This document shows positions 1 to 53,160 of a stretch of DNA of 64,000 bases, piece by piece. The notes beneath the pieces were generated by a model. That model did no database searches, was not told the origin of the DNA, and saw only the letters and a list, made by a program, of their open reading frames with translations. How positions within the stretch are numbered: the stretch's first letter is position 1; every line of letters begins with the position of its first letter. The position numbers were made by a program, and so were the translations under genes. This DNA is from Cantharellus purpuraceus (Eukaryota; Basidiomycota; Agaricomycetes; Cantharellales; Hydnaceae), in contig JALBUN010000016.1 in NCBI GenBank assembly GCA_025174535.1, positions 124,001 to 188,000 on the forward strand. The letters run 5' to 3'.

Positions 1-2794
1 TCTCCATCTCCATCACAAGGGGGCTCTTGGCATCGTTTCCTGATATCTTTGCGACTTTCATGGGTGTCCATACAGGTTTGCACTCGTTCATGCTGCACCT
101 TTCCAGGACCCCATCGATGTATTGGCATTGCGTCAGAGAGATGGTTCGCAGCTTTCTATCCCTTTTGATCGCGCATCTTGAAGGCCGTTGACAATTTTCC
201 TTTGATCTCTTCCATGAAGCAAGGCTGCTAACAGGAGGTCATCAACGTAGACGACAAGGAAGCAAGTGTCTCCTTTGGCACCCTTGAGCACGTACAGGCA
301 AGTTTCTGTGTTCAGTCTTGTAAATCCAATGTCGCTAAGTTTGGCGTTCAGTGTGCGATTCCATGCTCTGCCAGACCATACAGGGATCTTTTGAGTCCCC
401 AACAACACCCAGATGGAATGGGCATGCCGCCTGGAGGTTGCAAGTAGATTTCTTCTTCTAGTTTTCTGTTCAGGTATGCAGTGGCCACATCCATCTGATC
501 CAGTTCTAAGTCATATTTTGCAGTAAGCGCGATGATTATTCAGATTGATTCCAGGTTCACTATAGGGGCAAAAACTTCCTGATAATCCACCCCTTCCTTC
601 TGAGCTTGTGCCAGTCAATGTTTCTGTTTCTGTCAAGTTTGATGCACATCACTGGCTTCGAGGTGATTGGTGTTACCCCCTTGGGTATGGGTACGATGTC
701 ATATACATCATTGTCAGCTAAGTTCTGCAGTTCTTCATTGAGTGCAGATCTCCAAAACTTAGCATCTGGTCCTGATAACACTTCTTTCAGCATTAAGGGG
801 GTTCTGGCCCCTTTTGGTCCAGTGTTTGCAATGCCAGCAAAGTGGATATCATTGTGGTCTGCACTGTCCCATTGTTCAGTTGTCTGGAGGCTCGGTCCAT
901 CTTGTTTGTCCCCTCTTTGTTCTCTTGTTGTGGTGATCCTGAGTTGACACCTTTCTTGCAGATGCTGCTCATGCACTTCCCACGTCCTTTCATAGTCACA
1001 ATTCTGATCTGCCCTTGGTGGCTGTCTGGTGGGTCTGCGGGCTTCTTCAACTCGGGGTGTAGATTGGGGATGTGAGGTGTCGGCAGCCTCACTCTCTGGC
1101 ACAATGAGTTGGGTATGTGAATTCAGTGTGCAGCTCCTCTGTGGGATCTGTGATGGTGTGGACGGGAGTTGAGGTCTCCGTGAGGGCTGCTCTCCCACTG
1201 TCTCCACTGCTTGGTCGCATTCCAGTGCACCTCCTACTACCATCAGATGGTGGTTTTCATGTTGTGCATTTCTGGGTTTGTTTGGCTGAAGCATATACTC
1301 CCACTCATTCTTGGACTCATTCTCTTGTTTTTGGAGGTTTGGGGGAATTGTCCCATTCTCATTGAAGATTACGTGTCGGCTGTGGAACACTTTTCGAGTC
1401 TCAACATCAAGTAGCTTGTATGCCTTCATCCCAAGTGTGTACCCTAGCAATATGCTCTTCTGGCCCCTCTCACTGAATTTTCTGATCTGCTTTTCTTTAG
1501 GGATCAGTGCATACGATATGCAGCTGAAGGGTCGGAAGAAGGTGCAGTCAACCTTCTGCTTGAATAGTTTTTCATATGGGGATTTTTTGTGTATTCCTGA
1601 TGTGGGACTTCAGCCAATGAGGTAGCATGCTGTCAGCATGGCTTCCATCCAAAAGGTTTTTGGGAGTCTCAATTCGATCAGCATAGTGGTTGCTTTGCTT
1701 ACAAGTGATAGGTTCATGCATTCTGCAAGCCTATTTGACTCTGGTGTATCTGCAGCTGTGGTCTTGTGGATTGTGCCTTCAGCAAGTAACTGTCTTTCAA
1801 AATCATGGCTGCAGTACTTGCCTCCACCATCTGTGCGTAGGAAATCAATGAAATTTGCAGAGAAGTGAATTTGACTGATTTTTCATTGAAAAAGGCTTGT
1901 ACATCACTTTTCCACTGGTTATAGACAGTTTGTGCTTCTGCCTTCCTTTTCATGAAATATATCCATGGGAAGCGACTATATTCACAAATGAAGGTGATCC
2001 AGTACCAGTGTCCACTTTGGGATGTAGGTGTGATGGGGCCACCTACCTCGGAATGAATGATTTGGAGCAGCTGTTTTGCATTTCTATGTGTCAAGGGCTT
2101 GAATGGCAGTTTCTTTGCCTTTCCAAGTGCACATGGTTCACAGAAGTCAAAGTTCCTGGTGATGGCTGTTACATCTTGTAGTTGTCCTTGTTGTACCATG
2201 CATCTTAATCCCCTGATCCCAGCATGTCCCATTCATCTGTGCAGTACATTTGCATCGATTGAGAGGTTCACATGTTCTGATTTGATCACTGGTGTCGCAT
2301 CTAAGTGATAAAGCCCTCACTTGTGTGGTGCTTTCATAACTGTGGCTTGGCCCTGTTTTAAATAACATGCTTGGTGTTTGAATTTCACTGAAAGTCCAGC
2401 ATGGTCTAGTTTGTTGACTGAGATCAGTGATAGGGAGAAGCTTGGAACCAAGAGTACATTCATTAGGAAGAACCTTGCTCATGAGGTGCACCTTGCCCAT
2501 TCTGACGGCCTTGGCTGAGGAGTCATCACCAAAACGCACCATGTGTGGCGGTTGTATCAGTTTGTAGCTCCCTGGAATGAACCATTCTTGATGAGGTACC
2601 ATGTGCACAGATGCTCCTGAAACTATTAAGATGTCATGCTTAGTGCATGCAGGTTTGGACACAAAATAAGTGAAAAGGTGTTTCTTTTGGTTCTTAGAGG
2701 AGTGTACATTTGTGAATTGCACATGCTCATCATCTGAACTCTCTGAAGAAGATGAGGATTGAGAGCTGTCACTGTCATCAGTGGTCTCTTCTGC
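1..2794 (-). pseudogene. CopA copy 1: degenerate Ty1/copia pol (protease, integrase, reverse transcriptase)
   Basis: Read on the minus strand from 2794 down, the order is protease, GAG-pre-integrase, integrase and reverse transcriptase, which is the copia order. The protease motif is VSGAS near 2650 instead of the usual DSGAS. The zinc-binding stretch CEPCALGK lies near 2125-2150. The RT active site YVDDLL is near 250. The reading frame is broken several times, for instance inside the integrase near 1860 and after the RT core near 210, so no functional polyprotein is possible. The window edge cuts the element before RNase H. It is the same family as the copy at 35880-39930 but has lost many CpG sites. 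It was later hit by the solo LTR at 2795-3250. Confidence 0.9.
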
Positions 2795-3250
2795 TGTTAT
2801 GACTATATTCATTAACATCCAGATCCCCGTCCGATCCACTCAGATCCCCGCGCATATGAAATCTATACTCCATTTGGAAACCGCCATCTCCATCTACCTG
2901 TCCGATTGTCACCACTGATTCCACCCACCCGTCTCTGGTTCCGATTGATGCATCACCATCACCATAGGAACCCGGACATCCGTCCCCATTGGACTCGGAC
3001 ATACTCATGTAAGGCCGTCGGCCTCGGAGACCCATCACCGGAGTAATTATTATTAGATTTCAAAATATGTATTTAAGTCCGATCCTAACTCTCTAAGTCG
3101 TACTCCATCTCTGAAATCTCAGACACTGGTATTAGTGAGGGCGCAGCACATAAGCTGAAGCCAAGTCCGTTCTGACCCCCACGACGTGCTCCGACTCCAA
3201 CCCAACCTCCGACCCAATCTCCGACCCCCAATCAGACCTAGTGCATAACA
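2795..3250 (+). mobile_element. GypA-type solo LTR inserted in CopA
   Basis: The element starts TGTTATGACTATATTCAT and ends GTGCATAACA, giving the TG...CA ends and short terminal inverted repeat of an LTR. It is flanked on both sides by TCTGC, a perfect 5-bp target-site duplication (2790-2794 and 3251-3255). It closely matches the LTR at 11234-11774. The CopA reading frame resumes across it (gag tail ...RANKA, then AEETTDD), so it went into an existing CopA copy. The 456-bp length against 541 bp shows internal deletion. Confidence 0.93.
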
Positions 3251-4043
3251 TCTGCCTTGTTTGCCCTCTCATGCTTGTTTCGCCTCTCCTTCTTCACCTT
3301 CCCTTTTTTGCTCTTCTTTTTCTTCTCACAGCCCTTCAAGGTTCTGCATTCACTTGTTTCATGTGAGCAGTCTCCGTGCAGGGTGCAGTGCATGCTCCTG
3401 TTGGACTTTTGAGCCTTGAGGGCAGATTCAGAATTCGCCGATGTGGAGTTGCTGCCCAGACAGGTTATCTTGGCTGTGAGGCATGCATCTACTGTGGTGA
3501 ATGACAATGTCATGTTGGATGTCAATGAGTTCAGCACTGATGATTTGAAGGTTTCCCATATTGTGTTGGATGGAAGGGAGTGCAGGAGGAGGAACACTAG
3601 GAATTCATTGTCTATTCCCTTCTTCATTGCGATGAGTTGGTGGTTTGCTGACCAAATAGTAGCTATGTGTGTCTATTTGTGAGGTTCATTAGCTCTACAT
3701 AGGTATAGAAGGTGTTTATTCTGACATTGGTTTTTTCATGGAGTTTGATGATGTGGTCAAGGAGTCTTTTTGATGTGTCTTGGCTATAGACTTAAAGGAG
3801 TATTCTATTGCAGATGTGTTCAGTGATGATGCCATGTGCCTTTGCATTGCGCAATTCCCAGCTGTTGTTTGTGTGAAACATAGTGGTGGCTGGTGCTGCT
3901 GTCAGCTTTGGCTTGGTTCCATCTGCCACACTATAGACCTTTTCCTTCCTCAGTTTCGCTTTTATTTGCAACTTCCATTTTTGATAGTTCTCCGGGCCTA
4001 GTAGGACTGGGCAGTTCGTAGAGATGGATTTGGGCATCGTCAT
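3251..4043 (-). pseudogene. CopA copy 1 gag
   Basis: The minus-strand ORF starting at 4043 has the copia Gag N-terminus (LGPENYQKWKLQIKAKLRKE), a UBN2-like capsid domain. A frame break around 3630-3790 separates it from the C-terminal part at 3627-3251. That part carries a copia-type Cys/His motif (CTLHGDCSHETSEC, about 3350-3395) and a lysine-rich tail. Gag normally packages the element RNA in cytoplasmic particles. The solo LTR at 2795-3250 separates it from the protease. Frame loss makes it a pseudogene. Confidence 0.85.
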
Positions 4044-9345: not shown

Positions 9346-11116
9346 TTATACATCGCGTTTCCTCTTTCCCTTCCCCTTATCTACCTCAGGCTCTGTCTCT
9401 GACTCATCATCACTCTCTACATCCGACACCCAATCTTTTTCATCCCCCATGTCCGAATCCTCATCCAATGGGGCCATGAACTTCTGCAACCGACGTAACT
9501 CGGCTGTCCGACGACCCTCCAGAACCTCCTTCCATTTCATTGTTTTCACCAAGTCCACTAGCAACCCCTCCATCCGCCGAAGGTGCTCCGACTGCAGGTT
9601 AACCAGTACTATTGGGCGCCGAGATGTGCCCTGTACCTGCACCGGTCATTGCCCCTTCCGATCCAACGCCACTACCCCCAGCTGCCACAGCACCTGTCTC
9701 CGTCCACCTCTTTTTGGTCAGACGACCCTACGATTCTTTTTCTGCCCCTCCTTGTACCACTAGTCGGGGCTTGACACTCTGACTCCGGGGATCGAACTTT
9801 CCATCGATCCTACACCCCCCTTTCCAACCCCAACAACAATCGCAGGACCGAAGTCGGCGAGTTGGGCCAGTAGGCCACACGCACTCCACACCCGCATCAT
9901 GACATAAGTCACAAGTTATGCCGGGTCCACCAAATGGCTCCGTTGGAGCCAGAGCCTTGGGTAGTCTGCCCCTTCTCGCTGCAGCCTCCAAGCATTCCCT
10001 CTCCTCCTCCTTGTCCTGCTGTTCTGCTGCCACCTTCTCCATCTCACGCTTGCGAAGCTGGATCGCCAACCTAGCAACAGGCAGCTCCTTCTTACGGGTC
10101 GCCAAAATGCGACTCTCCACCTTGCACCATATGACCCTCCGATCCGCCTCCCGCTTCTCCATATCAGCACTCAGGTACGCCTTCAGTGAAAAGACCGCGA
10201 TGTCGAGGTTCTTCTTGATGGTAGTGGCATAGAGCTCTGCTCTTTTGCGAGCCTCGACCACAGCTACCCAAGCCATCTCCTCGTAAGAATTCGAAGTGGG
10301 ATCCGGCTCCGCATCCGTCCCAACATCCATGCCCCCCTCAGGCTCCGCATTTGCATCAAGCTCCACATTGGCATCGGGATCCGCCTCCACCTCTGCCCTC
10401 TCCATCTCCACTGCATCATCTTCCTCAGCTGCCCCCAACTCAAATAAGGGCCGTGTCCGCGGATGTAACGGTGAGTCCTCCGCAGTGACAGTCCTCGAAC
10501 GAGTCATCTCCATCCATGTAATGGAGATGATGGCGACTTCCGGGGTCCCTGGCCGTATTGGCACACTCAGACTTCCTGGGTGGCTGGTTCCCCCTGCCCC
10601 GGTCACCTCCTCCTCTACCTCCATGGCGGCCTCTAACTCGTGCGCCTGCTCCTCCACTTCTTTCAGTCTCGCAGCCTCCATCGCTGCCACAAGTTCCTTC
10701 ACCATGCGGGCCCTCTCGACCTTCGCTTCCTCCTCTTTCCTTCTCTGTTCCGTTTTCGCCGCCTCTTTCCGCCGCTGCTCTTCCTCCTCCTTCCGTCTCC
10801 ATTCTGCCTCCTCCTCCTCCTTCCGTCTCTGTTCCGCCTCCTCCTCCTCCTTCCGTCTCCGTTCCGCCTCCTCCTCCTCCTTCCGTCTCCGTTCCGCCTC
10901 CTCCTCCTCCTTCCGTCTCCGTTCCGCCTCCTCCTCCTCCTTCCGTTTCCGTTCCACCTCCTCCTCCTCATTCCGTCTCCGTTCCGCTTCCTCCTCCTCT
11001 TTCCATTTCCGCTCCTCCTCCTCTTCCTTTCGTTGGGCCAAGAGCAACTGCTCAAGCTCAGCCACACTCATGCTTGCCAGAGGGTTTGACATCGTTGAGG
11101 ATAAGACCTCAATCAT
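9346..11116 (-). pseudogene. Large antisense ORF of GypA: acidic/basic coiled-coil protein with Cys-rich motif
   Basis: It lies between pol and the 3' LTR, opposite to pol. The main frame (11116-9728, 462 residues) starts MIEVLSSTMSNPLASMSVAE. It continues with a long E/R/K coiled coil made of 10-residue repeats (EEEEAERRRK type), an acidic middle, a second helical region and a Cys cluster (CDLCHDAGVECVWP, then CDCC). After a stop at 9728 the same frame stays open for a while. A frameshift then leads to the C-terminal piece 9642-9346, with LRRMEGLLVDLVKTMK and the basic end KGKGKRKRDV. Function is unknown. The Cys cluster loosely resembles a fungal Zn(2)Cys(6) finger. I recall similar antisense ORFs in mushroom gypsy elements, but this needs a database check. 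Confidence 0.7.
10790..11010 (+). repeat. 30-bp coding tandem repeat
   Basis: About seven imperfect units of TTCCGTCTCCGTTCCGCCTC plus a CTCCTCCTCC block. On the minus strand they encode 10-residue E/A/R units of the coiled coil in the antisense ORF. The period is a multiple of three, so unit number can vary without breaking the frame. Confidence 0.9.
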
Positions 11117-11219
11117 GCCCCTCCTTTTATATGTCTCCAGACCCCCAGCATAACTCCGACCACGCCCAATCGTCTCACCTATTCAATCCACAGACATGAG
11201 GCCTCAGGGGCTCGGCCTT

Positions 11220-11233
11220 AAATGGAGAGATAC
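11220..11233 (+). promoter_or_regulatory. GypA polypurine tract
   Basis: AAATGGAGAGATAC lies directly before the TGTTATGAC start of the 3' LTR, the expected place for the plus-strand primer in reverse transcription. It fixes the orientation of GypA as plus. Confidence 0.55.
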
Positions 11234-11774
11234 TGTTATGACTATATTCATGAACGACCAGATCCCCATCCGATCCACTCAGATCCCCGTGCATATGAAA
11301 TCTATACTCCATTTGGAAACTGCTGCGTCTCCATTTACCTGTCCGATTGTCACCGCCGATTCCGCCCATCCGCCTCCGGTTCCGATTGATGCATCAGCAT
11401 CACCATAGGAACCCGGACATCCGTCCCCATCGGACTCAGACATACTCACGTAAGGCCGTCGGCCTCAGAGACCCATCACCGGAGTAATTATTATTAGATT
11501 TCAAATATGTATTTAAGTTGCCCGACTGGGGACTTCATTCCCCAGTTCGAATATTGAATCACGCCTAGCTCCTAAGTCCGATCCTAACTCTCTAAAGTCG
11601 TACTCCGTCTCCGAAATCTCGGACACCAGTATTAGTGAGGGCACAGCACATAAGCTGAAGCCAAGTCCGTTCCGACCCCCACAACGTACTCCGACCCCGA
11701 CCCAACTTCCAACCCTAACTCCGACCCAACCTCCGATCCAATCTCCGACCCCCAATCGGACCTAGTGCGTAACA
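11234..11774 (+). mobile_element. GypA 3' LTR (541 bp)
   Basis: Starts TGTTATGACTATATTCATGA and ends CCTAGTGCGTAACA. It holds a CT-rich repeat TCCGACCC... near the end. Solo copies occur at 2795-3250, 44365-46374 (interrupted) and 47761-47987. The base run after it (CTACC) would be the target duplication, but the 5' LTR is missing, so it cannot be tested. GypA therefore inserted into the leader of the HP element that continues on its right. Confidence 0.9.
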
Positions 11775-12215
11775 CTACCTCATAGATGGTAGTTCTCAGA
11801 GAGGTGGAGCCCCAAAGATCTAATGGGGCTCAAGGGGGAGAAGTGGAGCTACCAAGAATAAAGGTAGCTCCTAGTGGGATGCAACAAGGAGCTACCATCA
11901 ATAACAGTAGCTCAATGAGGGGAAGAGGAACTACCTCAATTAATGGTAGCTCCTAGATAAGGATAGAGCTACCATAACAGGCAGCTCGATGGTAGAAAAA
12001 ACTGCTCCCATAGGGAGCAGTTCACTGTTGTGCTACTCATAGTAGCACGAAAGGGGTAAGCGGTTATTAATTGTGTTACACCCATGTGACATAGTCACTG
12101 GAAAAATTCTCAATAAAGAATTTTTGAGCTCAGCCATAAAAGGCTAGCAGTGTTTCTTTGAACCACCACAACCCCCATCCATCACCCTCATGGGTGCAAC
12201 AAGTGCAACACATAT
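11775..12215 (+). other. HP element copy 1 leader: stem-loop array
   Basis: No coding frame of note. It holds perfect inverted repeats in close series: GGAGCTACC 11845-11853 with 11863-11871; an 11-bp stem 11888-11898 with 11943-11953; AACTGCTCCC 12000-12009 with 12013-12022; GTGCTACT 12030-12037 with 12041-12048; AAAAATTCT 12102-12110 with 12117-12125. A CATAAAAGG TATA-like site follows at about 12135. It is probably the 5' LTR or leader of the element whose ORF starts at 12216. Confidence 0.6.
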
Positions 12216-12366
12216 GTGTCACATTTAATTGAGGCCCAAAATGGAGGCCAACTATATCTTTCCACTGCTTCGGTGGAAAGAGCATTAAGAGTCGTGTGGC
12301 CACGACTTATATGCAACATCAAAGATGATGTCACAACACCTTATCATGAAGACTACAATAAGATGT
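12216..12366 (+). pseudogene. HP element ORF, N-terminal part, copy 1
   Basis: Starts MSHLIEAQNGGQLYLSTASV and runs to YHEDYNKM, where the M06 LTR is inserted. Removing that LTR and one GATGT joins it in frame to YKDNSDLFVQ on the other side. I do not recognise the family. The most likely role is the Gag-like structural protein of an LTR element, because it begins just after the leader. Confidence 0.6.
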
Positions 12367-12985
12367 TGTTAAGGGCTGGGAAACTCAGGGTTCAATGGAA
12401 TAACCAGAGTTAGGCTGCTAGCAAAGAGGGGGATGGGACTTTACTGTTCCAGTTCAGCCGGAGACAGAGTGGGAACAATACTATTGAGTCAGATCAAATG
12501 GACTTGGCTTCAACTTGTGTGTTGCACCCCCTTGGATTGTCAGTCCAATATTTCAGAGTCAGAGTATGGAGTTGGATCAGGGATCCAGAGTTCAACTTGT
12601 CAAGAAGGTACTTGTCAAGAAGCTAGCAACCAAGAAGTTGATGGGGCAAATCTTAGTCGATATACAAACTACTGTAATAGACAGAGAGTAGCCCATATAA
12701 GTATGTGGAGAATTGAATGCTGAAACTAAAACAATAAGACAATAAGATGGATAGGGAGTACAACATGGAAAGGGGTTTGGAGTTTGGACCCAAGTCCAAA
12801 CTATACTAAGCAATATAAAACAAGAGGTTTGTTGTAACCCATAAGAAGAAATTACTTATAAGGAGAACAATAAAAAAGGAGTTTGGGGTTGACAGAGGTG
12901 GAGTTGACGGAGGTGGAGTTGATGGATAATGGAGATGACGGAGATGGAGATCCAGAGATTGGACTTGGTGTTACAGAATGTATCA
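12367..12985 (+). mobile_element. M06 solo LTR, copy 1 (619 bp)
   Basis: Begins TGTTAAGGGCTGGGAAACTC and ends GTGTTACAGAATGTATCA. It is flanked by a perfect 5-bp duplication GATGT (12362-12366 and 12986-12990). The HP reading frame is continuous across the site once the LTR is removed, which proves insertion into an existing ORF. Other copies are at 32215 (truncated) and 34213-34805. Confidence 0.95.
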
Positions 12986-14302
12986 GATGTACAAGGATAA
13001 CTCAGACCTGTTTGTGCAGGTCCAAGAACTTGAAGGACCTCTCGACAATGAGAAGTCCGAAGTAACTCATCTCAGAGACAAGTTAAAAACACTGAAGGAG
13101 GCTGCTGATAGAGCACCTCCTACATTCAAGACCAAGCTCACAACGGTGTGCTTGGCCCCAGTAGCATCGCTATCACATGCTATGGCAGGCAAATCATTGC
13201 CTGCCATTATGCCATCACAACCTGTGGCTTCATCGTCACAGGAAACAAGTGATCTCACCAAAGAGGATGATCTCCTGAGCAAATTGCCTCAGGTTGACCC
13301 TCAAGGGTTTGAGGGTCAAGATTGGGATGACACCAACCCAATCTGGGAAGGATACAACCATGATCATGGTCTCCTCCTGGCTAGCATCCCCAAGGGTGCT
13401 AAAAGCAACCAGGCAAACTCAAAGAGTTTGCCCTATCAGAAATCGAAGCTGAGATTGATCAGCTTCAAAAGGAATATATGGCTAGTGATGCCAGCCGTAC
13501 CTTAAAAGACCCAGCATTGAAGACACTGGAAGAAGCCCAGCATACAAATTATTGCAAACACTGGGATGATTTCAGGCATACTCTCAAGCGTGCCAATGTG
13601 GGGAAATCATTCCCCAAATGGGCACTGTGGTTCATGACTGCAGCTGACCCCCCCAGAGCAGTCACTGGCCACCTGCCGCAACCTCTGGGCAAGTCCACCC
13701 CTATCAGGGCAGACTGGTTTGACATCTGTGATACAGACACTCCAGAGTTTGTATTGCTCCATAAAAAGGCATTGGCCATGCCATTTGCAGAATGGACTGT
13801 ACCGATGCACAGAGTCATCAAGAGAATGACTCTGCTGGCTTGCACTGATAACACGAATCTTATCGTCACTCTACCGACCACACCAGTAGATACACTTGCC
13901 CTCATACAGGGGTGGCAAGTAAACCCTAATGGGGCCCCCCCAGCCATCCAACAGGAGTTGGATGGTACTATGAACTTGTCCGATGTGGACATCTGGATGT
14001 GGCTGCAAAAGGCCACTCCCAAGAAGGGTTCTTCTGCGTTTAAGAAGAACCTCTGGACTATGTTCCAGAATCCTGGCCACTGGGGACTATTGACCAGTGG
14101 TCAAAAGTTCTCACCAATTCTTGGTGACACCTTTCATGCTTCAGTCACTGGAGCATATGATTGGAATCGCTACCCCAAAGAACATACTGAATTAGAGCTT
14201 GCACTCTGGTTTGGGCAATCTGGAGACATCACCCCCGATTGCGCTGCTATATTAGAGGAGTTTGCTAAACGCATCACCTCTGGAGCAGCTTTTAACCAGC
14301 CC
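12986..14302 (+). pseudogene. HP element ORF, main part, copy 1 (Gag-like, unknown family)
   Basis: It continues the ORF from 12216 with a coiled coil (VQELEGPLDNEKSEVTHLRD, about 13015-13090), a Ser/Pro/Ala linker and, after one frameshift near 13405, a 270-residue globular region (KEFALSEIEAEIDQLQKEYM ... GAAFNQP). There is no zinc knuckle, protease or RT. L14 interrupts it at 14302. The second copy (33565-35021) shows the C-terminus and a PPT-LTR junction right behind it, so the ORF is the last, and perhaps only, gene of the element. The coding sequence is packed with perfect stem-loops. Confidence 0.6.
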
Positions 14303-15735
14303 TGTTTTGAAACCTGCAAAATTATGGTGTTAGGGCAAACTCTAAATCACCACAATTCTGTGAATGAACAGCTGAGAAGAATATCAAACCCTGCTGCAGC
14401 ACAACTCCAGAAATGATTTAATGTTTGTACTTTGGTTACAATCCTTTGTATTGGTCAATGCAGACTATACGCAGAAAAGTAATACGTTTCTTAGCAGCAA
14501 GAAATGAATAAGATTTCCAGAGTCTAGAGTTCATGGATGCTTAGGGGTCCAGATATTACAAAAAGAGGGGAATGTACTTAGAGGCTAAAGGAAGTAGGTG
14601 GATGAATCCAACTGTCCAACCAGTGGCACTCTGAAGTGGGTAACAGCAATGTGTGAAGTAGTCTAGCAACTGCTTCACACAAGTTCAAGTTTCTAATGCT
14701 CTGCAAAGGCAGTACACACTAGTAACTTAAACAAGAGCAATAATGGCAGGACTATCAACAGACAATCTCACCCTGTAGATTTGTAGTCATGTGGGGCAGA
14801 TACTACACTCATACCCAAAGCAGGAATATCACTACTTTGAGTGCAATCAAGTACAGTTACACAACTGTAAAAGATCATTGAACTGGTAATCAACAGTTAC
14901 TGAGATAGAGGATGGCACTGTATGTCACTCTAGTCACACTGGTGTGCAGAAGATGGGTAGAATATGATGGATATGTTTCTATTTCAGAGGCAGAATGGCC
15001 TCCTTATATATTGTATTTACAGGGGCTGACTAATGGTTCTGGAATATTCTACCTATTAATAGATGGAAGCTACTGGAAGGTTGTGGAAGGTGGAAGAAAG
15101 GGGTAGAATATTCCAAGCCAATCACAGGTTCTGATCACTGGACTAACATTGATCAGGAGCTGAATAATGGTTCTGGAAAGTTCTATCTAATAATAGAAGG
15201 AAACAGCTAGAATGTTATGGAAAGGGGTAGAATATTCCAAGGCAATCACCTGATTTGATCACCCATCAGCTGATTTGATCCCTGAACTAGGCACTGATCA
15301 GGCAAAAAGAAGGGTGTCCACCCTGTTTTCTGCACTGGTTTGGACAGCCATGGATAGCCACATCTCATGTGATGATCTGCATGGAAAATAGTGCCCTGAG
15401 AGGCTGTGGTTGTCAAGTTAGAGAATATTTATTGATCAGAGACATCTGAGCTTGAATTCAGGCTGAATGCCTGGTCCAAAGGTGGATAGCCGGCTGTGTG
15501 AAGGTTTGTGGGCGCCTATGGGTCCACAACTGTAGCACAGCAGAAATAAATGATTCTGGGCCGAGTTCTGCATGGAATATTCCCGGAAAAATATGGAAAA
15601 ATAGAGAATATTTGAATAAGTCCATTCCAGGTACAAGCATCAAATATATGCTGATATTTAGGAATGGAAAAGCAAAGAATAGCACATTGGTGCTGCATAA
15701 ATGGAATTTGATAGGGAAAAGGTGGTTCCCATACA
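14303..15735 (-). mobile_element. L14 LTR, copy 1 (1433 bp), junction copy
   Basis: Ends TGTTTTGAAACC and GGTTCCCATACA match the other three L14 copies. Direction is given by the TATA and AATAAA signals of the copy at 44665. The flanks are AGCCC and AATGC, so there is no target duplication. Left of it is the HP ORF, right of it the CopC protease region. It therefore bridges two unrelated elements. Its upstream part carries AATATTCCA and CCAAT-type blocks in place of the TGACTCA array of the 44665 copy. Confidence 0.85.
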
Positions 15736-16859
15736 AATGCTGCTGTGTATCCACTCTGTGCTAGCTGACACACTGACAGTAATCTTGCCGCTATGCCAGG
15801 CACCCATGACATGTCTCAGAGCTCACCAAAGGCTTCACCGCCATCCTTCAGCCAGATTGCATACTGCAGAGTCCCAGCTCCTATGGCCTGCACCTGACCC
15901 TTCGCAGTGGTAATCATGTGGGGAGCGGTAAATGGTGCGTAATTCTGCAGATCCTCTTGGCATCGTGTGTAGTGGCTAGATGCCCCAGAGTCTAGATAGT
16001 ATGTAGTGGTGCCATCATGTCCTGCTGCCTGTGCATTCAGCACCATAAACATGCACCCCACAGGCGCTTGTGCATCTCCTTTTGCATTTGAGTCACTCTT
16101 CTTCTTCTTCGGCTTCATGCAGTTGCGTGCCCAGTGCCCCACTTCTCCACAATTGTGGCACTTTCCCTTTTGCTTTGTATTCGTTCCCTTGCCCTTTCCT
16201 TTAGCCAATAACCCTGCCTCACTACCACCTTCACCACATAGCTCACGGTGTAGCTCCATCTGTCTGAGCCTCATTGTGACATTCATGACAGTTTCCATAG
16301 TGTGATTAACTGTAGTGGTGAATTGGTCAAGCTCAGCTGGTAAGGAGTTAAGAAAATATGAAAGGAACTGTGAATTGGGTATGTTCTGTCCAGCTGCTAT
16401 GAGCTTCTGCTGGACCTCTTCCATTTTTAGCTGGTGCATCTGGATCGGCATCCCAGCCATGTACTTCATGGTCATTATCTGTGTGAACAGCACTGCATGG
16501 ATGCCATCCATGCTTGCACCATATGTGTCCTCTAGAGCTTTCCAAGCTTTCACTGGATCACGATTGCCTATAATAGGCTGCTTTCACTCATCTTCAATGT
16601 GCAGGGCAATCTCCATATATGCCCTTCCAGTGTGAAGATCCCATGCCACAATGGCTGCCATCTCAGCTGCCTTCAGTGCCATTGCATCTGCTGGCTCTGG
16701 CCTGAGGACTACACCTTGAACCATTACCATCTGGTTCAGTCCATATAGTATCGTCTCCATGTTGTTCTTCCATGAGTAGAAATTTGTCGAGTTGAGTTTT
16801 GGGAACATTGAGAACCCATTCCCAGTTGTAGTTATGTAGTTGAGTTGCATAGTGGTCAT
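15736..16859 (-). pseudogene. CopC copia gag and protease
   Basis: Minus-strand frame starting at 16859 (MTTMQLNYITTTGNGFSMFP). It reads through two in-frame TGA codons, at 16584-16586 and 15816-15818, both where CGA is expected. Domains: copia capsid (LNSTNFYSWKNNMETILYGL; later LPAELDQFTTTV), zinc knuckle CHNCGEVGHWARNC (16119-16160), protease active site YYLDSGASSHY (about 15975-16005), then the GAG-pre-integrase start WVPGIAARLLSVCQL. Integrase and RT are missing: L14 begins at 15735. The frame is otherwise clean, so this is a fairly young but inactivated copy. Confidence 0.9.
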
Positions 16860-30117: not shown

Positions 30118-31358
30118 TGTATGGGGCACTGGTTTTCCCTGAAAAGATCTTGTTTATGGTCCTGAAATTATATATTTTCACCTTAAAATATCAGCATATA
30201 CATGCTGCTTTCTCTATTTAGGGTCATTCAAATATTCTCTATTTTTTCATATTTTATCAGGAATTTTCCATGCAGAAATAGGTTCACAAATTTATTGTCC
30301 TGCTGGGTGAAGTTTTGGACCCACATGGACCCACAAAACTTCACAGATGTCAGCAGCTTCAAAGTCAGCAGAGTCACCTGATCTACTGACTCATTTTTGA
30401 TCACATGACTCATTTCAATCTCTGACCCAATCTGATCACCACTGCCAGCAAATGCTCAATATCTTGGCAACCACAACTCCTCCTGACTCCACTTTTGGTG
30501 AAGCTTACAATTGAAGCTGTGCCTACCCATAGCTGTGCTGATCAGCCTGGGAAACAGGGTATTGCTGGAGTTATTTGAGTTATAGTGACTCATGCTATGA
30601 CTCCTGCCATGACTCATAACTATTAATAGGTAGAAGGATTAGTCAGCTCCTGTAGATACAGTATATAAGGAGGCCAATTTGCCTCTGAATAAATAACCAT
30701 CTTCTACCCCATCATTTGCACATCAGTGTGACTAGAGTGACATACAGTGTCATCCTCTATATCTCAGTAACTGTTGATTGTCCAGTTCAAGGGTCGCTTA
30801 CAGTTGTGTAACTGTATTTGATTGTACTCAAAGTAGTGATTGTCCTGCTTTGGGCATGAGTGTAGTATCTACCTTGTGTGACTATGAATCTACAGGGTGA
30901 GATTGTCTGTTGATAGTCCTGCCATTAGTGCTCTTGTTCTAGTGTGTACTGCCTTAGCAGAGCATTAGGAGCTTGAACTTGTGTGAAGCAGTTGTTAGAC
31001 TACTTCACACATTGCTGTTACCTGCTTCAGAGTGTCACTGGTTGGATGGTTGGATTCATCCACCTACTTCCTTAAGCCTCTAAGTACATTCCCCTCTTTT
31101 TGGAATATCTGGACCCCTAAGCATCTGTGAACTCTAGACTCTGGAAATCTTATTCATTCTCTACTGCTAAGAAACATATTACCTTCCTGCATATTGTCTG
31201 CATTGACCATTACAATAGATTGTAACCAAAGTACAAATGTTAAATTGTTTCTGGAGTTGTGCTGCAGTAGGATTTGATATTCTTCTCAGCTGTTCATTCA
31301 TGGAATTGTGGTGAGTTAGAGTTTGCCCTAACACCATAATTTTAGAGGTTCCAAGACA
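30118..31358 (+). mobile_element. L14 LTR, copy 2 (1241 bp), junction copy
   Basis: Runs from TGTATGGGGCACTGG to GGTTCCAAGACA, with TATATAAGG near 30662 and AATAAATAACC soon after. Left flank ATTAT and right flank CAGTC do not match. The left neighbour is CopE gag and the right one GypA pol. Only about four TGACTCA sites are present, against eight TGASTCA sites in the copy at 44665. Confidence 0.88.
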
Positions 31359-33564: not shown

Positions 33565-34212
33565 ATAGACACTCCTGAGTTCATATTGATGCACAAGAAG
33601 GCATTGGCCACACCATTTGCTGAGTGAACAGTGCCAATGCACAGAGTTATTAAGAGAATGACTCTGCTGGCTTGTGCAAATAATGCAAGTCTTATTGTTA
33701 CCCTACCAACTATGCAAGTAGACCCACTTGCCCTAATACAGGGGTGGCAAGTAAATCCACATGGGGTGCCCCCAGCCATCCAACAGGAGTCAGATGGTAC
33801 CATGAATCTATCTGATGTGGATATATGGATGTGGCTCTAAAAAGCCACTCCCAAAAAGGGTTCATCTGTGTTCAAGAAGAACCTCTGGACTCTGTTCCAG
33901 AATCCTGGCCACAGGGAATCATTAACCAGTGGTTATAAGCTTTCACCAACAATTAGTGATTTGTTCTGTGCTTCTATCATGGGAGTGTATGATTGGGAGG
34001 ATTGCTCCCCCAAGGAACATACTGAGTTAGAGCTAGTGCTCTGGCTTGGACAAACAGGAGGTATCACCCCCATTTGCACTGTCCTCCTAGAGGTATTTGC
34101 AAGTCACATCATCTCTGGAGAAGTATTCAACCAACCTACCAGGGTTGGTAAATGAAAACAAGAGGCTCTAGGAGCCTCTCAAGCAGCCCAGAAGGCTGCT
34201 AAGTGCTCCCTC
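33565..34212 (+). pseudogene. HP element ORF, copy 2, central part
   Basis: Matches 13733-14302 at protein level (KRMTLLACANNASLIVTLP; MNLSDVDIWMWL; PKEHTELELVLWLGQ) and extends it past the L14 break of copy 1 (EVFNQPTRVGK). In-frame stops occur, for example TAA at 33838-33840, where copy 1 has Gln. It still carries stem-loops, such as AGAGGCTC 34161-34168 with 34172-34179 and AGCAGCC 34182-34188 with 34194-34200. Confidence 0.7.
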
Positions 34213-34805: not shown

Positions 34806-35021
34806 CCCTCACTGAGTGCTTAGGTCACAATAAACTCAATCCATGACCTTGATTGAGACACCATGTTAGCAGTTGCCTCCTCCTCATCCATTCAGTTGGA
34901 TGAGGATGTAATGATGACATTGGAGACAACTGAGAGTTGTCCTCCTCCAGAGCCATATGATCAAGATGATCATATGGACACCGACTCATCTGAACAGCTC
35001 CACAAGAAGCTGTACAACTAA
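34806..35021 (+). pseudogene. HP element ORF, copy 2, acidic C-terminus
   Basis: The frame at about 34870-35021 reads an acidic tail (SIQLDEDVMMTLETTES; YDQDDHMDTDSSEQLHKK) and stops 39 bp before the LTR. Upstream of it the frame is broken. The DNA is a run of stem-loops: TCCTCATCCA 34881-34890 with 34897-34906; GACAACT 34925-34931 with 34935-34941; CCATATGATC 34953-34962 with 34968-34977; TGAATGAGGT 35026-35035 with 35039-35048 just after it. Confidence 0.55.
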
Positions 35022-35047
35022 TTAGTGAATGAGGTTATACCTCATTC

Positions 35048-35060
35048 AAAACAGGGAGGG
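35048..35060 (+). promoter_or_regulatory. Polypurine tract of HP copy 2
   Basis: AAAACAGGGAGGG immediately before the TGTAAGTACC start of an LTR. This fixes the HP element as an LTR retroelement on the plus strand and its ORF as the last gene. Confidence 0.7.
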
Positions 35061-35250
35061 TGTAAGTACCCTAGGTACTTACTTGTGGTAAAATATTATA
35101 TATATATATATATATGCTTGTATTTGTATCTACAGCATTCCCTTAAGAAATGCTGCTTCTTGGTAGCTATATGCACCCATGGGGTGCATATATACAGTTA
35201 TTATATAATCAGTGGACCCAAGTATATGTGTGGGTCCACATGTAGTTAGA
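35061..35250 (+). mobile_element. HP 3' LTR, GypB-type (right end uncertain)
   Basis: Begins TGTAAGTACCCTAGG and shares its first ~160 bp with 47187-47340 (GCATTCC, TGCACCCAT, GTTATTAT). It contains stems GTAAGTACC 35062-35070 with 35074-35082, TATGCACCC 35170-35178 with 35182-35190, and GTGGACCCA 35212-35220 with 35231-35239. The likeness to the GypB LTR suggests HP is a non-autonomous relative of GypB. Confidence 0.65.
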
Positions 35251-35254
35251 GTAA

Positions 35255-35589
35255 CTTAGATTTTACCACACCACTGTCACATATAGCACAACCAATATAT
35301 CTTGGTTGAGTTCTGTGTCAGTGTAAACTAAGTCCAACCTTACACTACCTAGATGTATACTACAGGGCTCACAGTCAATGTAGTTACACATGTGAGAATG
35401 ATATGGAATGTACACTTCAGTTGTGTGGGGAGCAATCAACTGAAGTATCTGATAGAACAATATGGGACTTATATACCACCAAGTCAGGTGGGAAATAAGG
35501 ATCTTCACCACTATGCATGTGTATTTGCAGCTGTTGCACTGTGGTACTGACACTATGCTTCCATGTTCATCAGCCTCCATATTCCAACA
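35255..35589 (+). mobile_element. Second copy of the AAGAC-flanked LTR (left end uncertain)
   Basis: Positions 35400-35589 match 20818-21043 (ACACTTCAGTTGTG, GGGGAGCAATCAACTGAA, ATATTCCAACA end). CpG is largely converted: GTGCGGGG reads GTGTGGGG and CACCGAATCAGG reads CACCAAGTCAGG. Confidence 0.7.
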
Positions 35590-44364: not shown

Positions 44365-44664
44365 TGTTATGACTATATTCATTAATGCCCAGATCCCCAT
44401 CCGATCCACTCAGATCCCTGCGCATATAAAATCTATACTCCATTTGGAAACCACCATGTCTCCCTCTACCTGTCCAATTGTCACTGCCGATTCCGCCCAT
44501 CCATCTCCAGTTCCGATTGATGCATCAGCATCACCATAGGAACCTGGACATCCATCCCCATCGGACTTGGACATACTCATGTAAGGCCATTGGCCTCAGA
44601 GACCCATCACCAGAGTAATTATTATTAGATTTCAAATATGTATTTAAGTTGCCCGACTGGGGAC

Positions 44665-47186: not shown

Positions 47187-47603
47187 TGTAAGTACCCAAG
47201 GTATTTACTTACTATAGTATATAGCTAGATAGTTATAATTAATGTATGCAGCATTCCATTAAGGAATGCTGTCTTCTTGATAGATATATGCACCCATAGG
47301 GTGCATATGTATAGTTATTATGTAATCCAGTGCATCATAAATGATGAACAGTGGCACATAGCCAGCAGCAAAAGCTCCCAGGAAGGGGAGCTAGACCCTA
47401 GAGAAGTTGCAGGGACTTCTCATAAGGAAGACTCTAGAAGAGAGTTGCCATGATTGTGAGACCACACAGACAATCGCACAATAGATTGTCTGTCGAACAA
47501 GAACCCTTCATTGAGTGGTTCTTTGATTAGAGAAGAAAGGAGGAGACAGTCATCCACTGTCTCCAATGTTCCTAAAGAAAAGGAATGTGCTCAATATACA
47601 AGC
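47187..47603 (+). mobile_element. GypB 5' LTR/leader, left part
   Basis: Begins TGTAAGTACCCAAGG like the LTR at 35061. Stem-loops: AGCATTCC 47250-47257 with 47263-47270; ATATGCACCC 47286-47295 with 47299-47308; GGAGACAGT 47542-47550 with 47556-47564. The L14 solo LTR interrupts the leader at 47604. The exact LTR end and primer site could not be placed. Confidence 0.6.
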
Positions 47604-49254: not shown

Positions 49255-50982
49255 CAAGCACAAGTAGAAGTAGCAATACTTCTACTAGGGAATCGCGCAG
49301 CACAGATCGATGTGAAACCCACAGGTCAATCGCAAGATTGACTGAACAACTCATGCATAATCAACATGAGATGAAGAGCATTAGTGAAGCTAGTGCTCAG
49401 GCAGCTAAGATGGCTGCCAAAGCAGCTAGGAACGATGTTAAAATCACTCCAAGAGAACTCTGAGTGATGCAAGTCACATTGCTGAAGATCAGATTCTCAA
49501 CAAGAATCTGAATCCAGAGAGTCTGGACCTCCCTGGGGTGAGAGGGTCCAACCGAATGATTGGTTAGACAGAGGAAATGAATTTTCCCCAATGGAGGGAA
49601 TTAGAGACCCAGTAATCCCAGCGAGGCAAGGATTACTGATCCAGATTGAAGAGGAAACTCCTCAATCTATGGCAAAGGAGCTCAATCAAGAGATCGAGCT
49701 ATGGAAACAACAAGAAGTTGAGGCTTCTCATAAACATAGATTAGCCCTCAAATGGAAGGCTAAACATGCAAAGCAGGAGCTCGGCCAGCTGTTTAGAGAG
49801 CAGCGGCCCCAGCAAGAGCTCAATGTGGCTGTCAATTTGAATCGACAGTCACAACATGCACTGAACAGTTATCAGCATGTACAAGCGGTGGGCCTTTCAG
49901 GAGACACCCACCATGAGCAACAAGATACCCAATGGGTACCTCAAGAAGACATTCCCCATAACAGGGAGCAATCAGCACCATTGACCCTAGAAGGTCAAGG
50001 CATACCAGATCAATTGGACACAATTGATCCTATTGATAGCATTACTCGCATGGTGTGAGTAGCCATAGTCAATAATAGAGACACAGACCCAGAGAGTCTG
50101 TACTTGCCAAGGCGGGCATTAAAGTATTGCCTCCTGAGCAATATGCAGGAGGTGCAGATCTTGAAGAGTTTGAGATCTTTGTAGCAGGTATGCTACAATG
50201 GCTGAAGATGAATAATCTCCTAGGGCCATCAAGTACAAAGTTTCAGCTATTGTACTTAGGCACTCACCTTAAAGGTGAGGCCCAGGAATGGTTCTACAGG
50301 AATGTAGGACACTATGACAGGGCAGTCCAAGACTGAACCCTGGAAACTGCAATCCAAGGATTGCAGTGTAGATTCCTACACACCCTGACGCATCACCATG
50401 CATCAAATAAATTTGACTCTGTAATACAGGGTCAAAGGATCATTCACGAATTAATGAACGACCTAGATAAGTACGCGGGTTGCATGATAATGCCACCAGA
50501 CGCATACACATACAGGAAGAGGTTTGTAACCGCAATGCCTGAACCTCTGAGACAAGAAGTCCTCAAGAAGGGCTTCAATGCCAAATTTAGCAGTATCAAG
50601 CAGTTATATGAAACTGCTCGAATGATAGAGGAAGCAACATAATACCACCACAGTATGTGATGCCTGGAGAATGTGACTAATGCGTCCTCCTCAACCCATA
50701 GACCAGTAGTCAATAGAACTACTGGTATGATGAATATGGGGAGCCAACCCACACCCCAAGGACATGTGTATATGGCTCTCAACACATACTCATGACAAGT
50801 TAGTGTGTCAAGGTTGGAACCCTGTAATGGAAGCTCTGGGTCCAATTCCAACAATTACCTTTTCAAGGGTAATTATCAATTGAAACCACCAGCACACGCA
50901 AGTGGTGATCAATTGAACAATGTTACTAGTAATGTTGTGTGCTACAAATGTGGCCAGACAGGTCACATGTGACCTAGCTGCC
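49255..50982 (+). pseudogene. GypB gag (gypsy type) with zinc knuckle
   Basis: Several frames follow each other: a coiled-coil N-terminus (IARLTEQLMHNQHEMKSISE), a Gln/Glu-rich part (49591-50058), then the gypsy capsid (YAGGADLEEFEIFVAGML, LGTHLKGEAQEWFYRN, MPEPLRQEVLKKGF; 50127-50642) and a CCHC knuckle CYKCGQTGHM-stop-PSC (50940-50981). The TGA inside the knuckle is where Arg is expected, and another TGA near 50334 replaces Trp. Frameshifts separate the parts. Perfect stem-loops run through it, such as CAGTAATCC 49610-49618 with 49630-49638 and ACTGCAATCC 50346-50355 with 50358-50367. Confidence 0.85.
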
Positions 50983-52250
50983 CCAAATTAAAGGGCAACA
51001 TAAGGTTGGCTGCAGTCCAAAAGGATGTGTCCTCACACATAGTGGAGGATAAGGTAGACAGATTCTCCCCGATAGAGGGAGAACATGAAGAAGCAATGGA
51101 TGATCCCAAGGACCATCTAGATGAAAAAATATCAGCTATAGAAGTGGCTGATGAATGGGATGAAGAGGTCACCCCATATGAATGGGACGACCAAGATGAT
51201 GCTGAAAGGGAGGCTATGCCAATGTATCGCTCTAATGCGATACAAATTCAACCCAATGATCAAATTCCACCAAGACACACCTATGCAGTGCATTTCTGTA
51301 GTGCAACAAAATTCCTGAGAAACAGGGAATCATGACAGCTGCATATAGCTGCTGTCAGTGTCAACAGATCAGCCAAACCTGTGTATAATCATAGGAGCTG
51401 ACAGGAGTTGACAGCACGACCAGATAGACCATGCATAGACAACAAAACAATCTCTGGGTATTGGGAGATTGGTGGAACACTAGCCCACTGTCTATTAGAC
51501 AGTGGAAGCGAGGGGATAATGATATCCCCTGAATTCATACACATGAGAGGTATGAAAACCTTTGTGCTAGAGCAACCCATCGCACTGCAATTAGTGTGCA
51601 TTGGGAGCAGGAGTACCATAAATTATGGTACTCACACTACCATAAAATTTGGTAGTCAGGACATTGAAGAATATTTCGATGTCACCAACGTTGAGTATTA
51701 TGATACTTGGCACCCCATTCCTACAAAAGCTAGGAATATGCCTGGACTTTAATGGCCCAGGCCAAATCATGATGGGAACTGAAGAAGTCCCCACCAATGA
51801 AGAGCATAATACCGATGCTCTTCATACCCCATCATGGGGTATAAACTCAATGTGAGGAAGGAGTATTGGCACAAATAAATGACGCCAAGGGGGTAACTCT
51901 AAACATGAGCTACCCACAATGCAGTCCTTTCTAAAAAAAGGACTAGACTCGGTAAAGGACCCCCCAATGGAGGATCCAAATAAGAGCACAATGTGAATAG
52001 CTTCGTCTTGTGAAGGATCAACTGCTTACATGGCTGGTCAGATCCCTCAGTTGAGGGATCAATGAAAAGAAAAGTACACTGACCTACTCGGCAGCATACC
52101 CTTAGAACTTCCCCCATTTAGGGAAGTTAACCACAAGATTAATCTTGTGGATCCTGACAAGCAAATACATTATCACTTGCCTAAGTGTCCAGAGCACTAC
52201 TGAGCAGAACTTTCTTTGAAAGTTCTGCGATACACCACTGCTAAATGGTG
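50983..52250 (+). pseudogene. GypB acidic linker and aspartic protease
   Basis: An acidic stretch (51006-51335, EEAMDDPKDHLDEKISAIEV) is followed by a retroviral-type protease: GGTLAHCLLDSGSEGIMIS, with the DSG active site at about 51497, then GSRSTINYGTHTTIKFGSQ (51408-51752). The frame breaks at about 51735 and again later, so no active enzyme is expected. Ten or so stems of 7-11 bp lie between 51485 and 52278, including a perfect 20-bp palindrome at 52131-52150. Confidence 0.8.
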
Positions 52251-53160
52251 GGTATCAGCTACAGCCCAGCAGGCTGTACCAATGCTATGCATTCCCAAAA
52301 AAAAATGGGAAGCTCCACACCATGTTTGACTTGCATGAACAGAATGATAATACAGTGAAGGACATAAAACCCTTCCCCAATCAGGACAACATTAGACACA
52401 ATGTTGCCCACTGTACATATCGATCTAAACTCAATATGTCTGAGGCATAGGAACAGATACACATCAGACTGACAGATATACCCAAGACGGCATTTGCAAC
52501 CGTCTTGGGGACATTTGTCAGTCAAGTTGTGCAGCAAGGGGACTGCAATGCCCCCTTGACATTTCAGCAGCTCATGACTGCCATCTTCTGAGAATATATC
52601 AGAAGATTCATTTATGTAGATCTGGATGACATATTTGTGTACTCTCATACTATACAAGAGCACAAACACCACCTAGAGATGGTGTTCACCAAGCTCAGGA
52701 AAGTACATATGTTCCTGAGCAAGGATAAGATCGATCTATACTCAACAAGTATGGATTGCCTTGGTCACCTAATAGATGACCAAGGCATGCACGCAGATAA
52801 TGCAGTGAATATGAGAGTGGAGACAACCTAGGTCATACCATGAAGTCCAATGTTTTCTTGGACTAGTGCAGTATCTGGCACACTATATGCTAGACATAAC
52901 TGCATACACAACCCTGTTATCAGGTTGTGCTCATAATAATCATTCATTCTTATGGACACTGCTGCTGGAGAAATGCTTCAAAAGCATCAAGCTCCTAGCG
53001 TGTAGGGCTCCAATATTGAAGCCCATTGATGTCAATAACCCTGATACTATTTGAGTTATTACTGACAGCTCCAAAACTGGAGTCAGAGCCATATATGGAC
53101 AAGGAAAAGATTGGCAGACCTGTTGGCCTGCCAGATTCCTCTTTCTGTCTCAAATGCCAC
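52251..53160 (+). pseudogene. GypB reverse transcriptase and start of RNase H
   Basis: MFDLHEQNDNTVKDIKPFPN-type RT start, then GDCNAPLTFQQLM, the active-site region FIYVDLDDIFVYS (about 52610-52650; canonical YxDD with an altered spacing residue) and the thumb HLIDDQGMHAD. It then reaches the connection and the first strand of RNase H (ITDSSKTGVRAIY). Stops at TAG 52448 and TGA 52590 (Arg expected before EYI) inactivate it. The element ends at about 53160 and host sequence follows; integrase and 3' LTR are lost. Confidence 0.85.

What the first reader, a model, noticed from the sequence alone, without database searches (positions are those of the whole stretch)
12986..14302. A protein-coding ORF built as a chain of perfect stem-loops (HP element)
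Perfect inverted repeats with tiny loops follow one another inside the ORF: ATGGCAGGCAA 13183-13193 with 13198-13208; TTGACCCTCAA 13294-13304 with 13309-13319; AGATTGGG 13319-13326 with 13337-13344; palindrome 13357-13370; GGCAAACTC 13412-13420 with 13424-13432; GAAGCTGA 13445-13452 with 13459-13466; TGGGGAA 13599-13605 with 13610-13616; CCATCCAA 13944-13951 with 13958-13965; TTGACCA 14090-14096 with 14098-14104. An 8-bp stem with a loop of 12 nt or less should occur about 0.2 times per kb by chance (1000 x 13 / 65536). Here the rate around 13.2-13.6 kb is near one per 55 nt. No feature type I know explains this in coding DNA. Possible causes are RNA structure needed for packaging or for avoiding silencing, or a mutation process that copies short inverted repeats, such as reverse-transcriptase template switching.
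Basis: seen in the sequence. Interest (0 to 1): 0.9.

Follow-up and report, generated by a model that had tools for sequence, protein, structure and literature searches.

The report
Retrotransposon built of perfect hairpins
A Ty3-type jumping gene in this fungus carries short perfect hairpins along its coding and non-coding parts, tens of times more than comparable elements in the same genome; their paired letters change far less than the letters between them, which points to an unexplained structural function.

Summary
The flagged stretch (window 12985-14302) is the 3' ORF region of a multi-copy Ty3/Gypsy LTR retrotransposon. The family is hairpin-rich: copy L011 has 58 perfect stems of 8 bp or more (loop up to 12 nt) in 5757 bp, against 5 in 24,708 bp at eight other Ty3-like loci of the genome, and far above dinucleotide and synonymous-codon shuffles. 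Hairpins lie in RNase H and integrase motifs, gag-pol, 3' ORF and LTR. Copies share them and lose them by CpG decay.

Between subfamilies about 79% identical, LTR-stretch stems differ at 1 of 126 columns, the rest at 66 of 321. In the coding stretch only third codon positions show it clearly (3/28 v 42/122). So pairing looks selected. Loop inversions show template switching at some hairpins, but 23 of 2651 mutation clusters fit it, all at one hairpin.

Against simple RNA selection: no covariation above shuffles in the LTR, no consistent G-U preference. RNA or single-stranded cDNA is undecided. Ten literature searches found no such element.

The parts
11774..12184 (+). Segment of the hairpin Ty3 family upstream of the core (equivalent to L011 3738-4107); 5 stems >=8 bp with loops <=12 start here, more with longer loops
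12175..12366 (+). Family segment (L011 4273-4460); about 166 bp present in L011 are missing between it and the previous part
12367..12984 (.). Other repeat of about 0.6 kb inserted into this copy; L011 reads across, with a 12-bp overlap of the two matches
12985..14302 (+). Core: 3' ORF region of the Ty3 family, two open frames in this copy (12978-13505, 13478-14416)
13182..13207 (+). Hairpin, 11-bp stem, 4-nt loop
13294..13319 (+). Hairpin, 11-bp stem, 4-nt loop; broken by CpG-type changes in most of 20 copies
13319..13344 (+). Hairpin, 8-bp stem, 10-nt loop
13357..13370 (+). Palindrome, 7+7
13412..13432 (+). Hairpin, 9-bp stem, 3-nt loop; loop inverted (AAA/TTT) between copies, a mismatch changing arm with it
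13445..13466 (+). Hairpin, 8-bp stem, 6-nt loop
13599..13616 (+). Hairpin, 7-bp stem, 4-nt loop
13810..13834 (+).
13944..13965 (+). Hairpin, 9-bp stem, 4-nt loop
14027..14051 (+).
14077..14104 (+). Two overlapping 7-bp hairpins
14111..14127 (+). Hairpin, 7-bp stem, 3-nt loop
33567..34208 (+). 3' ORF part of a subfamily-B copy (80% identical to L011)
34820..35332 (+). 3' end and LTR of the same subfamily-B copy; hairpins shared with subfamily A
47187..47332 (+). 5' LTR of a further copy, starts TGTAAGTACC, cut short here
47333..47602 (+). Leader region of that copy, with hairpins at 47466 and 47542
49255..53140 (+). gag / protease / RT part of that copy, hairpins throughout; gag-, protease- and RT-like motifs read by eye from the ORF list

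Best explanation
A Ty3/Gypsy LTR retrotransposon family (Tf2-like SH3 domain at the integrase C-terminus, an extra 3' ORF after integrase, LTRs of about 270 bp) whose sequence has been shaped into a chain of short perfect hairpins (8-13 bp stems, mostly 3-8 nt loops). A single copy shows about one per 100 nt; positions shared by copies number about one per 70 nt, through coding and non-coding parts alike. SHOWN: the density, its absence from the other elements sampled, the sharing by copies, the near lack of change in LTR stems between subfamilies, and hairpins inside conserved protein motifs. INFERRED: in the active element pairing itself was under purifying selection, most simply because the full-length transcript, or the single-stranded cDNA made from it, has to fold into local hairpins. 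My guess at the benefit is compaction of the genomic nucleic acid for particles together with poor access for host RNA silencing; neither was tested. Template switching at the perfect arms flips loops as a by-product and may have helped make the first stems. Inserted copies no longer keep the structure; they decay, largely by CpG-type mutation.
For: Density: L011 58 stems >=8 bp in 5757 bp v 5 in 24,708 bp at eight other Ty3-like loci; in the window and 19 flanked copies, family-masked DNA 741 in 114,450 bp v 74 in 139,550 bp outside. Synonymous shuffles, 400 each, of six L011 ORF pieces, >=8 bp: RT-RNaseH 2 v mean 0.13 (max 2), RH-connection 3 v 0.12 (max 2), IN-a 3 v 0.20 (max 2), IN-b 0 v 0.15 (max 3), 3' ORF parts 10 v 0.28 (max 3) and 3 v 0.28 (max 3); with >=7 bp five of the six exceed every shuffle. 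Hairpins in DGSKAGVGAI, DYDYLLVVID, DLIMSDQD; most of the DYLLVVID residues are conserved in 13 relatives aligned. 82 hairpin positions shared by >=2 rows in five alignments. Subfamily A v B, LTR stretch, stems defined on A: 1/126 v 66/321, Fisher 1.6e-9, 0 of 427 circular shifts as low; on B: 5/147 v 62/300, 2e-7, 0 of 427. Loops change like spacers: 7/35 and 60/286. Coding stretch, third positions: 3/28 v 42/123, 3/28 v 42/122, p=0.012, without duplicate rows, and 3/25 v 42/125, p=0.033, with stems from B. Pairs changed on both sides between subfamilies, not CpG by the printed context: T-A 31/A-T 8, G-C 25/A-T 6, A-T 27/G-C 4, and G-C 17/A-T 6 with 10 A-C. Folding z, strand as given: -3.35 and -3.07 in the family, -0.12 to -0.28 in three other Ty3 loci, -0.21 in a Copia stretch. 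Loops of 0-2 nt in 14 of 106 hairpins.
Against: Covariation in the 22-copy LTR alignment is not above shuffles: score 0.073 v 0.071, 3 pairs with both sides changed v 4.1. Coding stretch, all positions: p=0.055 with stems from A, 0.37 from B; 0.039 and 0.37 without duplicate rows; first and second positions show no difference (3/52 v 19/252). No consistent wobble signal: G-T exceeds A-C in both LTR sets (138 v 88; 70 v 48), A-C exceeds G-T in the five internal sets; terminal mismatches A-C 36 v G-T 13; both strands fold equally. One stretch (-1395 to -866, integrase C-terminal part) has no shared hairpin. Facing CpG sites decay in all four combinations, so nothing keeps pairing in inserted copies. 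A lower mutation rate of paired letters could mimic part of the contrast. No function was tested.
Confidence: 0.55

Rival explanations
1. Mutation-driven hairpins: the element's reverse transcriptase, or host replication of the element, switches template between nearby inverted repeats so often that imperfect palindromes become perfect stems, and purifying selection on the proteins merely filters the outcome.
For: Loop inversions in 4 of the 10 L011 hairpins with 3-nt loops (alignment rows AAA/TTT 26:7, ATA/TAT 15:5 and 10:1, CAA/TTG 17:1), one a flip of the whole hairpin with its mismatch, one seen also in L058 but not in the similar row L055 (by eye). No consistent wobble preference. Arm homogenisation and spacer inversion are known in yeast genes (PMC8604942, abstract and section 6), and template switching is proposed to create and maintain RNA hairpins (PMC8794818, passages).
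Against: 23 of 2651 in-family multi-base clusters fit local reverse-complement copying, all at hairpin 13412-13432; 0 of 1017 outside the family (clusters are counted per pair of copies, and the scan did not recover the other three loop inversions, so it is not exhaustive). I saw no clear hairpin birth between subfamilies. Unbiased arm-to-arm correction would let stems diverge at the neutral rate in paired steps, but LTR stems hardly diverge.
Confidence: 0.25
2. DNA-level function: the hairpins matter in single-stranded cDNA or as cruciforms in double-stranded DNA (for example second-strand priming, integration, or protection of the intermediate), not in RNA. This overlaps with the cDNA half of the best explanation.
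For: Equal folding of both strands, no G-U preference inside the element, A-C rather than G-U at stem ends.
Against: 5' closing bases and loops are strand-biased (A or C 70 v T or G 36; A 0.39 v T 0.25 in loops), and the LTR sets show more G-U than A-C. I know of no Ty3 step that needs so many hairpins (recalled).
Confidence: 0.2
3. Ordinary: chance, composition, tandem repeats or assembly artefact.
For: None found.
Against: Shuffles, other coding regions and other Ty3-like loci, the same stems in many copies on different contigs.
Confidence: 0.01

Closest known systems
Ty3/Gypsy (Metaviridae) LTR retrotransposons with a Tf2-like integrase C-terminus
   Same: RNase H, integrase zinc finger and SH3_Tf2-1 domains match Pfam above cut-off; LTR starts TG and ends CA, about 269 bp; many nested, decayed copies
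   Different: About 10 stems >=8 bp per kb in L011 against 0.2 per kb at eight other Ty3-like loci of the same genome; extra 3' ORF without Pfam match above cut-off
Genome-scale ordered RNA structure (GORS) of persistent vertebrate RNA viruses (search listings and starts of abstracts seen; details recalled)
   Same: Excess local folding energy over coding and non-coding parts; synonymous sites constrained
   Different: Here discrete perfect Watson-Crick stems, both strands folding equally, in a fungal retrotransposon; no link to persistence known
Template-switch hairpins (PMC8794818, passages read; PMC8604942, abstract and section 6 read)
   Same: Perfect stems, loop inversion at short loops
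   Different: Those are single events in genes; here some hundred hairpins in one element, shared between subfamilies, with arm copying almost absent among present copies
Dispersed packaging-signal hairpins of RNA viruses (recalled, no call)
   Same: Many short hairpins along a genome
   Different: Loops here are not conserved and I saw no common motif in them (no motif search run)

Membership tests
Ty3/Gypsy LTR retrotransposon | RT - RNase H - integrase order and domains | tested here: met
   L011 ORF pieces in order: RT_RNaseH_2 2.8e-15, RT_RNaseH, Integrase_H2C2 1.9e-7, SH3_Tf2-1 4.8e-12; rve 0.0011 is below its cut-off. The RT itself was read by eye as an LDD motif in ORFs, not submitted to Pfam
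Ty3/Gypsy LTR retrotransposon | Long terminal repeats with TG...CA ends | tested here: met
   About 269 bp at the 3' end of L011 (6089-6357) and at the 5' side of L027 (229-494); no single copy with both LTRs was shown
Ty3/Gypsy LTR retrotransposon | Short target-site duplication, primer binding site, polypurine tract | not tested
   No complete undisturbed copy was fetched
GORS-type structured genome | Folding energy well below sequence-order controls along the genome | tested here: met
   Mean z -3.35 (47 segments of L011) and -3.07 (32 segments of window 49256-53140); three other Ty3 loci -0.12 to -0.28
GORS-type structured genome | Structure formed in the RNA and tied to host defence | not testable with these tools
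   Needs probing and expression data
Selected RNA secondary structure | Covariation above controls | tested here: inconclusive
   LTR alignment of 22 copies: not above shuffles. Three strongly covarying pairs in the coding stretch, not tested formally
Selected RNA secondary structure | Stem columns more conserved than loops and spacers | tested here: met
   LTR stretch 1/126 v 66/321; coding stretch clear only at third positions, weak or absent over all positions
Template-switch-generated hairpins | Loop inversion at perfect arms | tested here: met
   4 of the 58 L011 hairpins
Template-switch-generated hairpins | Multi-base changes of one arm that copy the other | tested here: not met
   23 of 2651 clusters, all at one hairpin and reflecting its inversion; deeper history not readable

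The most novel reading that the evidence does not exclude
A retrotransposon lineage has turned its genome, catalytic domains included, into an array of about a hundred or more near-independent perfect mini-hairpins kept by selection: a genome architecture I found described for no retroelement, with a function (shielding from silencing, packing, or an unusual replication step through self-folding cDNA) that would be new.
Probability: 0.4. Interest if true: 0.9.

Novelty: new variant of a known kind. Interest (0 to 1): 0.76.

Why it matters
If pairing is selected, this element solved two coding problems at once: proteins of ordinary Ty3 type and a dense chain of hairpins. It would be a natural experiment on why a mobile RNA needs local structure, with hairpin-poor Ty3 relatives in the same nucleus as controls. 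If it is mutation-driven instead, it would be the most extreme product of template switching known to me. Both readings can be tested with probing data and genomes of related fungi.

Tried and rejected
Homologs of the 3' ORF (L011 piece, 300 aa) in the protein collection: none at E<=0.001 among 533 candidates. Integrase piece: 224 proteins of 229 candidates, 120 listed, sources given only as jgi, ena, ncbi or src; 13 of them were aligned. DNA relatives in viral contigs and genome contigs with one protein and with an alignment: none confirmed. Rfam on window 11000-16000: 0 matches at gathering threshold. AlphaFold of window 13478-14413 without alignment: mean pLDDT 34, useless. Template switching as a common process in present copies: not supported (four settings gave 23 of 2651, 14 of 2026, 11 of 915 and 16 of 7014 in-family clusters, no reverse-complement fit outside, and 2 fits of a control template outside). 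Codon register of hairpins: 11 of 46 pair third with third positions, not significant (p=0.21). Ten literature searches on hairpin-rich retrotransposons, fungal hairpins, RNA structure and template switching showed no description of such an element in their listings; most subscription papers are not held.

Weak points of my tests: subfamily groups were made by a 4-point identity difference to two anchor copies; 6 of 35 LTR rows and 1 of 42 coding rows fell between and were left out. CpG-type columns were dropped. Stem columns were those in perfect stems of at least 20% of one group; at 10% the LTR contrast is weaker (8/166 v 59/281; from B 12/181 v 55/266). Row L042 repeats a copy that is also in L022, and L032, L033 and L035 are near-identical; the LTR set has no such rows, and the coding result was recomputed without three of them; the 36-row core alignment still holds these rows, and L014/L037 besides. 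differ by one column (67 v 66 of 321) through ties. The family mask includes a nested foreign repeat (window 47603-49254), so its density is an underestimate. Counts are alignment rows, not copies. One search scored 40 of 1412 first-look candidates.

Full report
What was checked. In 12986-14302 there are 13, 8 and 6 perfect stems of at least 7, 8 and 9 bp with loops up to 12 nt; 300 dinucleotide shuffles average 1.11, 0.32 and 0.10 and never exceed 5, 2 and 2. Synonymous-codon shuffles do not explain it either, though for the second frame at >=8 bp 2 of 500 reach the observed 3. Seven other open frames of the window have 0-1 stems of 8 bp.

What it is. The window lies in an assembly of 40.15 Mb in 50 contigs. 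The stretch matches 39 other places over 800 bp or more, at 87-92% identity; only 40 of 1412 first-look candidates were scored. Comparing 20 loci with flanks, the window's own among them, shows that it is the 3' part of a longer element: upstream come RNase H, integrase zinc finger, integrase core (weak) and a Tf2-like SH3 domain, so it is a Ty3/Gypsy element. An LTR of about 269 bp (TG...CA) ends it. The window also holds the 5' half of another copy (LTR 47187-47332, leader to 47602, gag-pol 49255-53140) and the 3' end of a diverged copy (33567-34208, 34820-35332). In the flagged copy a repeat of about 0.6 kb is inserted at 12367-12984 and a different repeat follows at 14303. The 3' ORF has no Pfam match above cut-off and no relative in the protein collection.

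The hairpins run through the family. Copy L011, which begins within RT, has 58 stems >=8 bp in 5757 bp. Alignments of 6, 12, 14, 36 and 19 rows along it contain 82 hairpin positions shared by at least two rows, about one per 70 bp, with one empty stretch of some 530 bp in the C-terminal part of integrase; counting singletons there are 106. Eight loci of the same genome around other Ty3-like matches, 26-48% identical in RNase H or integrase pieces, have 5 such stems in 24,708 bp. In the window and 19 flanked copies, family-masked DNA has 741 stems in 114,450 bp and the rest 74 in 139,550 bp. Folding z-scores average -3.35 and -3.07 in two stretches of the family, -0.12 to -0.28 in three of the other Ty3 loci and -0.21 in a Copia stretch.

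Hairpins and protein. Hairpins lie in DGSKAGVGAI of RNase H (11-bp stem), DYDYLLVVID (11 bp) and DLIMSDQD (8 bp) of integrase; that these are catalytic motifs is recalled. Thirteen relatives, chosen from 120 listed, keep most of the DYLLVVID residues, so that stem could be reached largely through codon choice. Of six L011 ORF pieces, five have more stems than the mean of synonymous shuffles and one (IN-b) has none of 8 bp; at >=8 bp the observed number equals the largest of 400 shuffles in two of the five, at >=7 bp all five exceed every shuffle.

Age and decay. Copies share the stems and often lose them by CpG-type changes; CpG observed/expected is 0.18 in L011 and 0.58 in the window. Where two CpGs face each other, all four decay combinations occur. 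The hairpins thus belong to the active ancestor and inserted copies do not keep them.

Selection. Two subfamilies about 79% identical were compared. In the 3'/LTR stretch (17 and 12 copies, no near-identical rows) stem columns defined on A have 1 majority difference in 126, the rest 66 in 321 (Fisher 1.6e-9; 0 of 427 circular shifts as low); stems defined on B give 5/147 v 62/300. Loops change like spacers (7/35, 60/286). In the coding stretch (34 and 7 rows) the all-site contrast is weak (6/80 v 61/375, p=0.055; from B 8/74 v 59/381, p=0.37). Without three duplicate or near-identical rows it is 6/80 v 62/373, p=0.039, and from B 8/74 v 60/379, p=0.37; third codon positions give 3/28 v 42/122, p=0.012, and from B 3/25 v 42/125, p=0.033, while first and second positions do not differ (3/52 v 19/252). 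A lower mutation rate of paired letters should lower all three positions; the numbers are too small to exclude it. Four pairs that are not CpG by context changed on both sides between subfamilies. In a 22-copy LTR alignment covariation does not exceed shuffles, because the stems hardly change.

Template switching. Four of ten L011 hairpins with 3-nt loops show reverse-complement loops in some rows; in one, a mismatch changes arm together with the loop, and one flip appears also in another subfamily (by eye). Spacer inversion at perfect arms with 2-5 nt spacers is known from yeast coding genes (PMC8604942, section 6). But 23 of 2651 multi-base clusters fit local reverse-complement copying, all at one hairpin; the scan missed the other three inversions, so it is not exhaustive. 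I saw no clear birth of a hairpin between subfamilies; a few positions, AT-rich or too decayed, could not be judged.

Which strand or molecule. The evidence is mixed. Folding is equal on both strands. G-U exceeds A-C in the LTR sets, A-C exceeds G-U in the five internal sets and at stem ends (36 v 13). Loops are A-rich and closing bases strand-biased. I therefore claim constraint on pairing, not on RNA pairing specifically.

Judgement. A known kind of element with an architecture that ten searches did not show described. The constraint is well supported for the LTR stretch and moderately for coding parts; the function is a guess.

Noticed in passing
window 11234-11774; also 2794-3250, 44365-44665, 46133-46379, 47761-47987: A repeat of about 540 bp whose end at 11774 abuts truncated ends of the hairpin element at the same base in the window, in L011 (600/601) and near it in L015 (922/929); fixed-end insertion or a shared junction.
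   Followed up: partly
window 14303-15735, 47603-49254, 30226-31358, 44741-46119: A further repeat family, nested in the hairpin element and elsewhere, itself poor in hairpins.
   Followed up: no
window 12463-12982 and 34308-34802: A repeat of about 0.6 kb found twice next to hairpin elements, about 90% identical.
   Followed up: no
L049, alignment A2 columns 448-500: One stem arm of the LTR hairpin stands three times in tandem in this single copy.
   Followed up: no
window 10690-11049: Tandem array of 30-bp units within the minus-strand open frame 9728-11116.
   Followed up: no
L011 600-6357: Strong CpG loss (o/e 0.18 v 0.58 in the window), as in methylation- or RIP-like decay of repeats.
   Followed up: partly
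L011 about 3060-3590 (-1395 to -866): A 530-bp stretch of the element, integrase C-terminal part, without shared hairpins.
   Followed up: no
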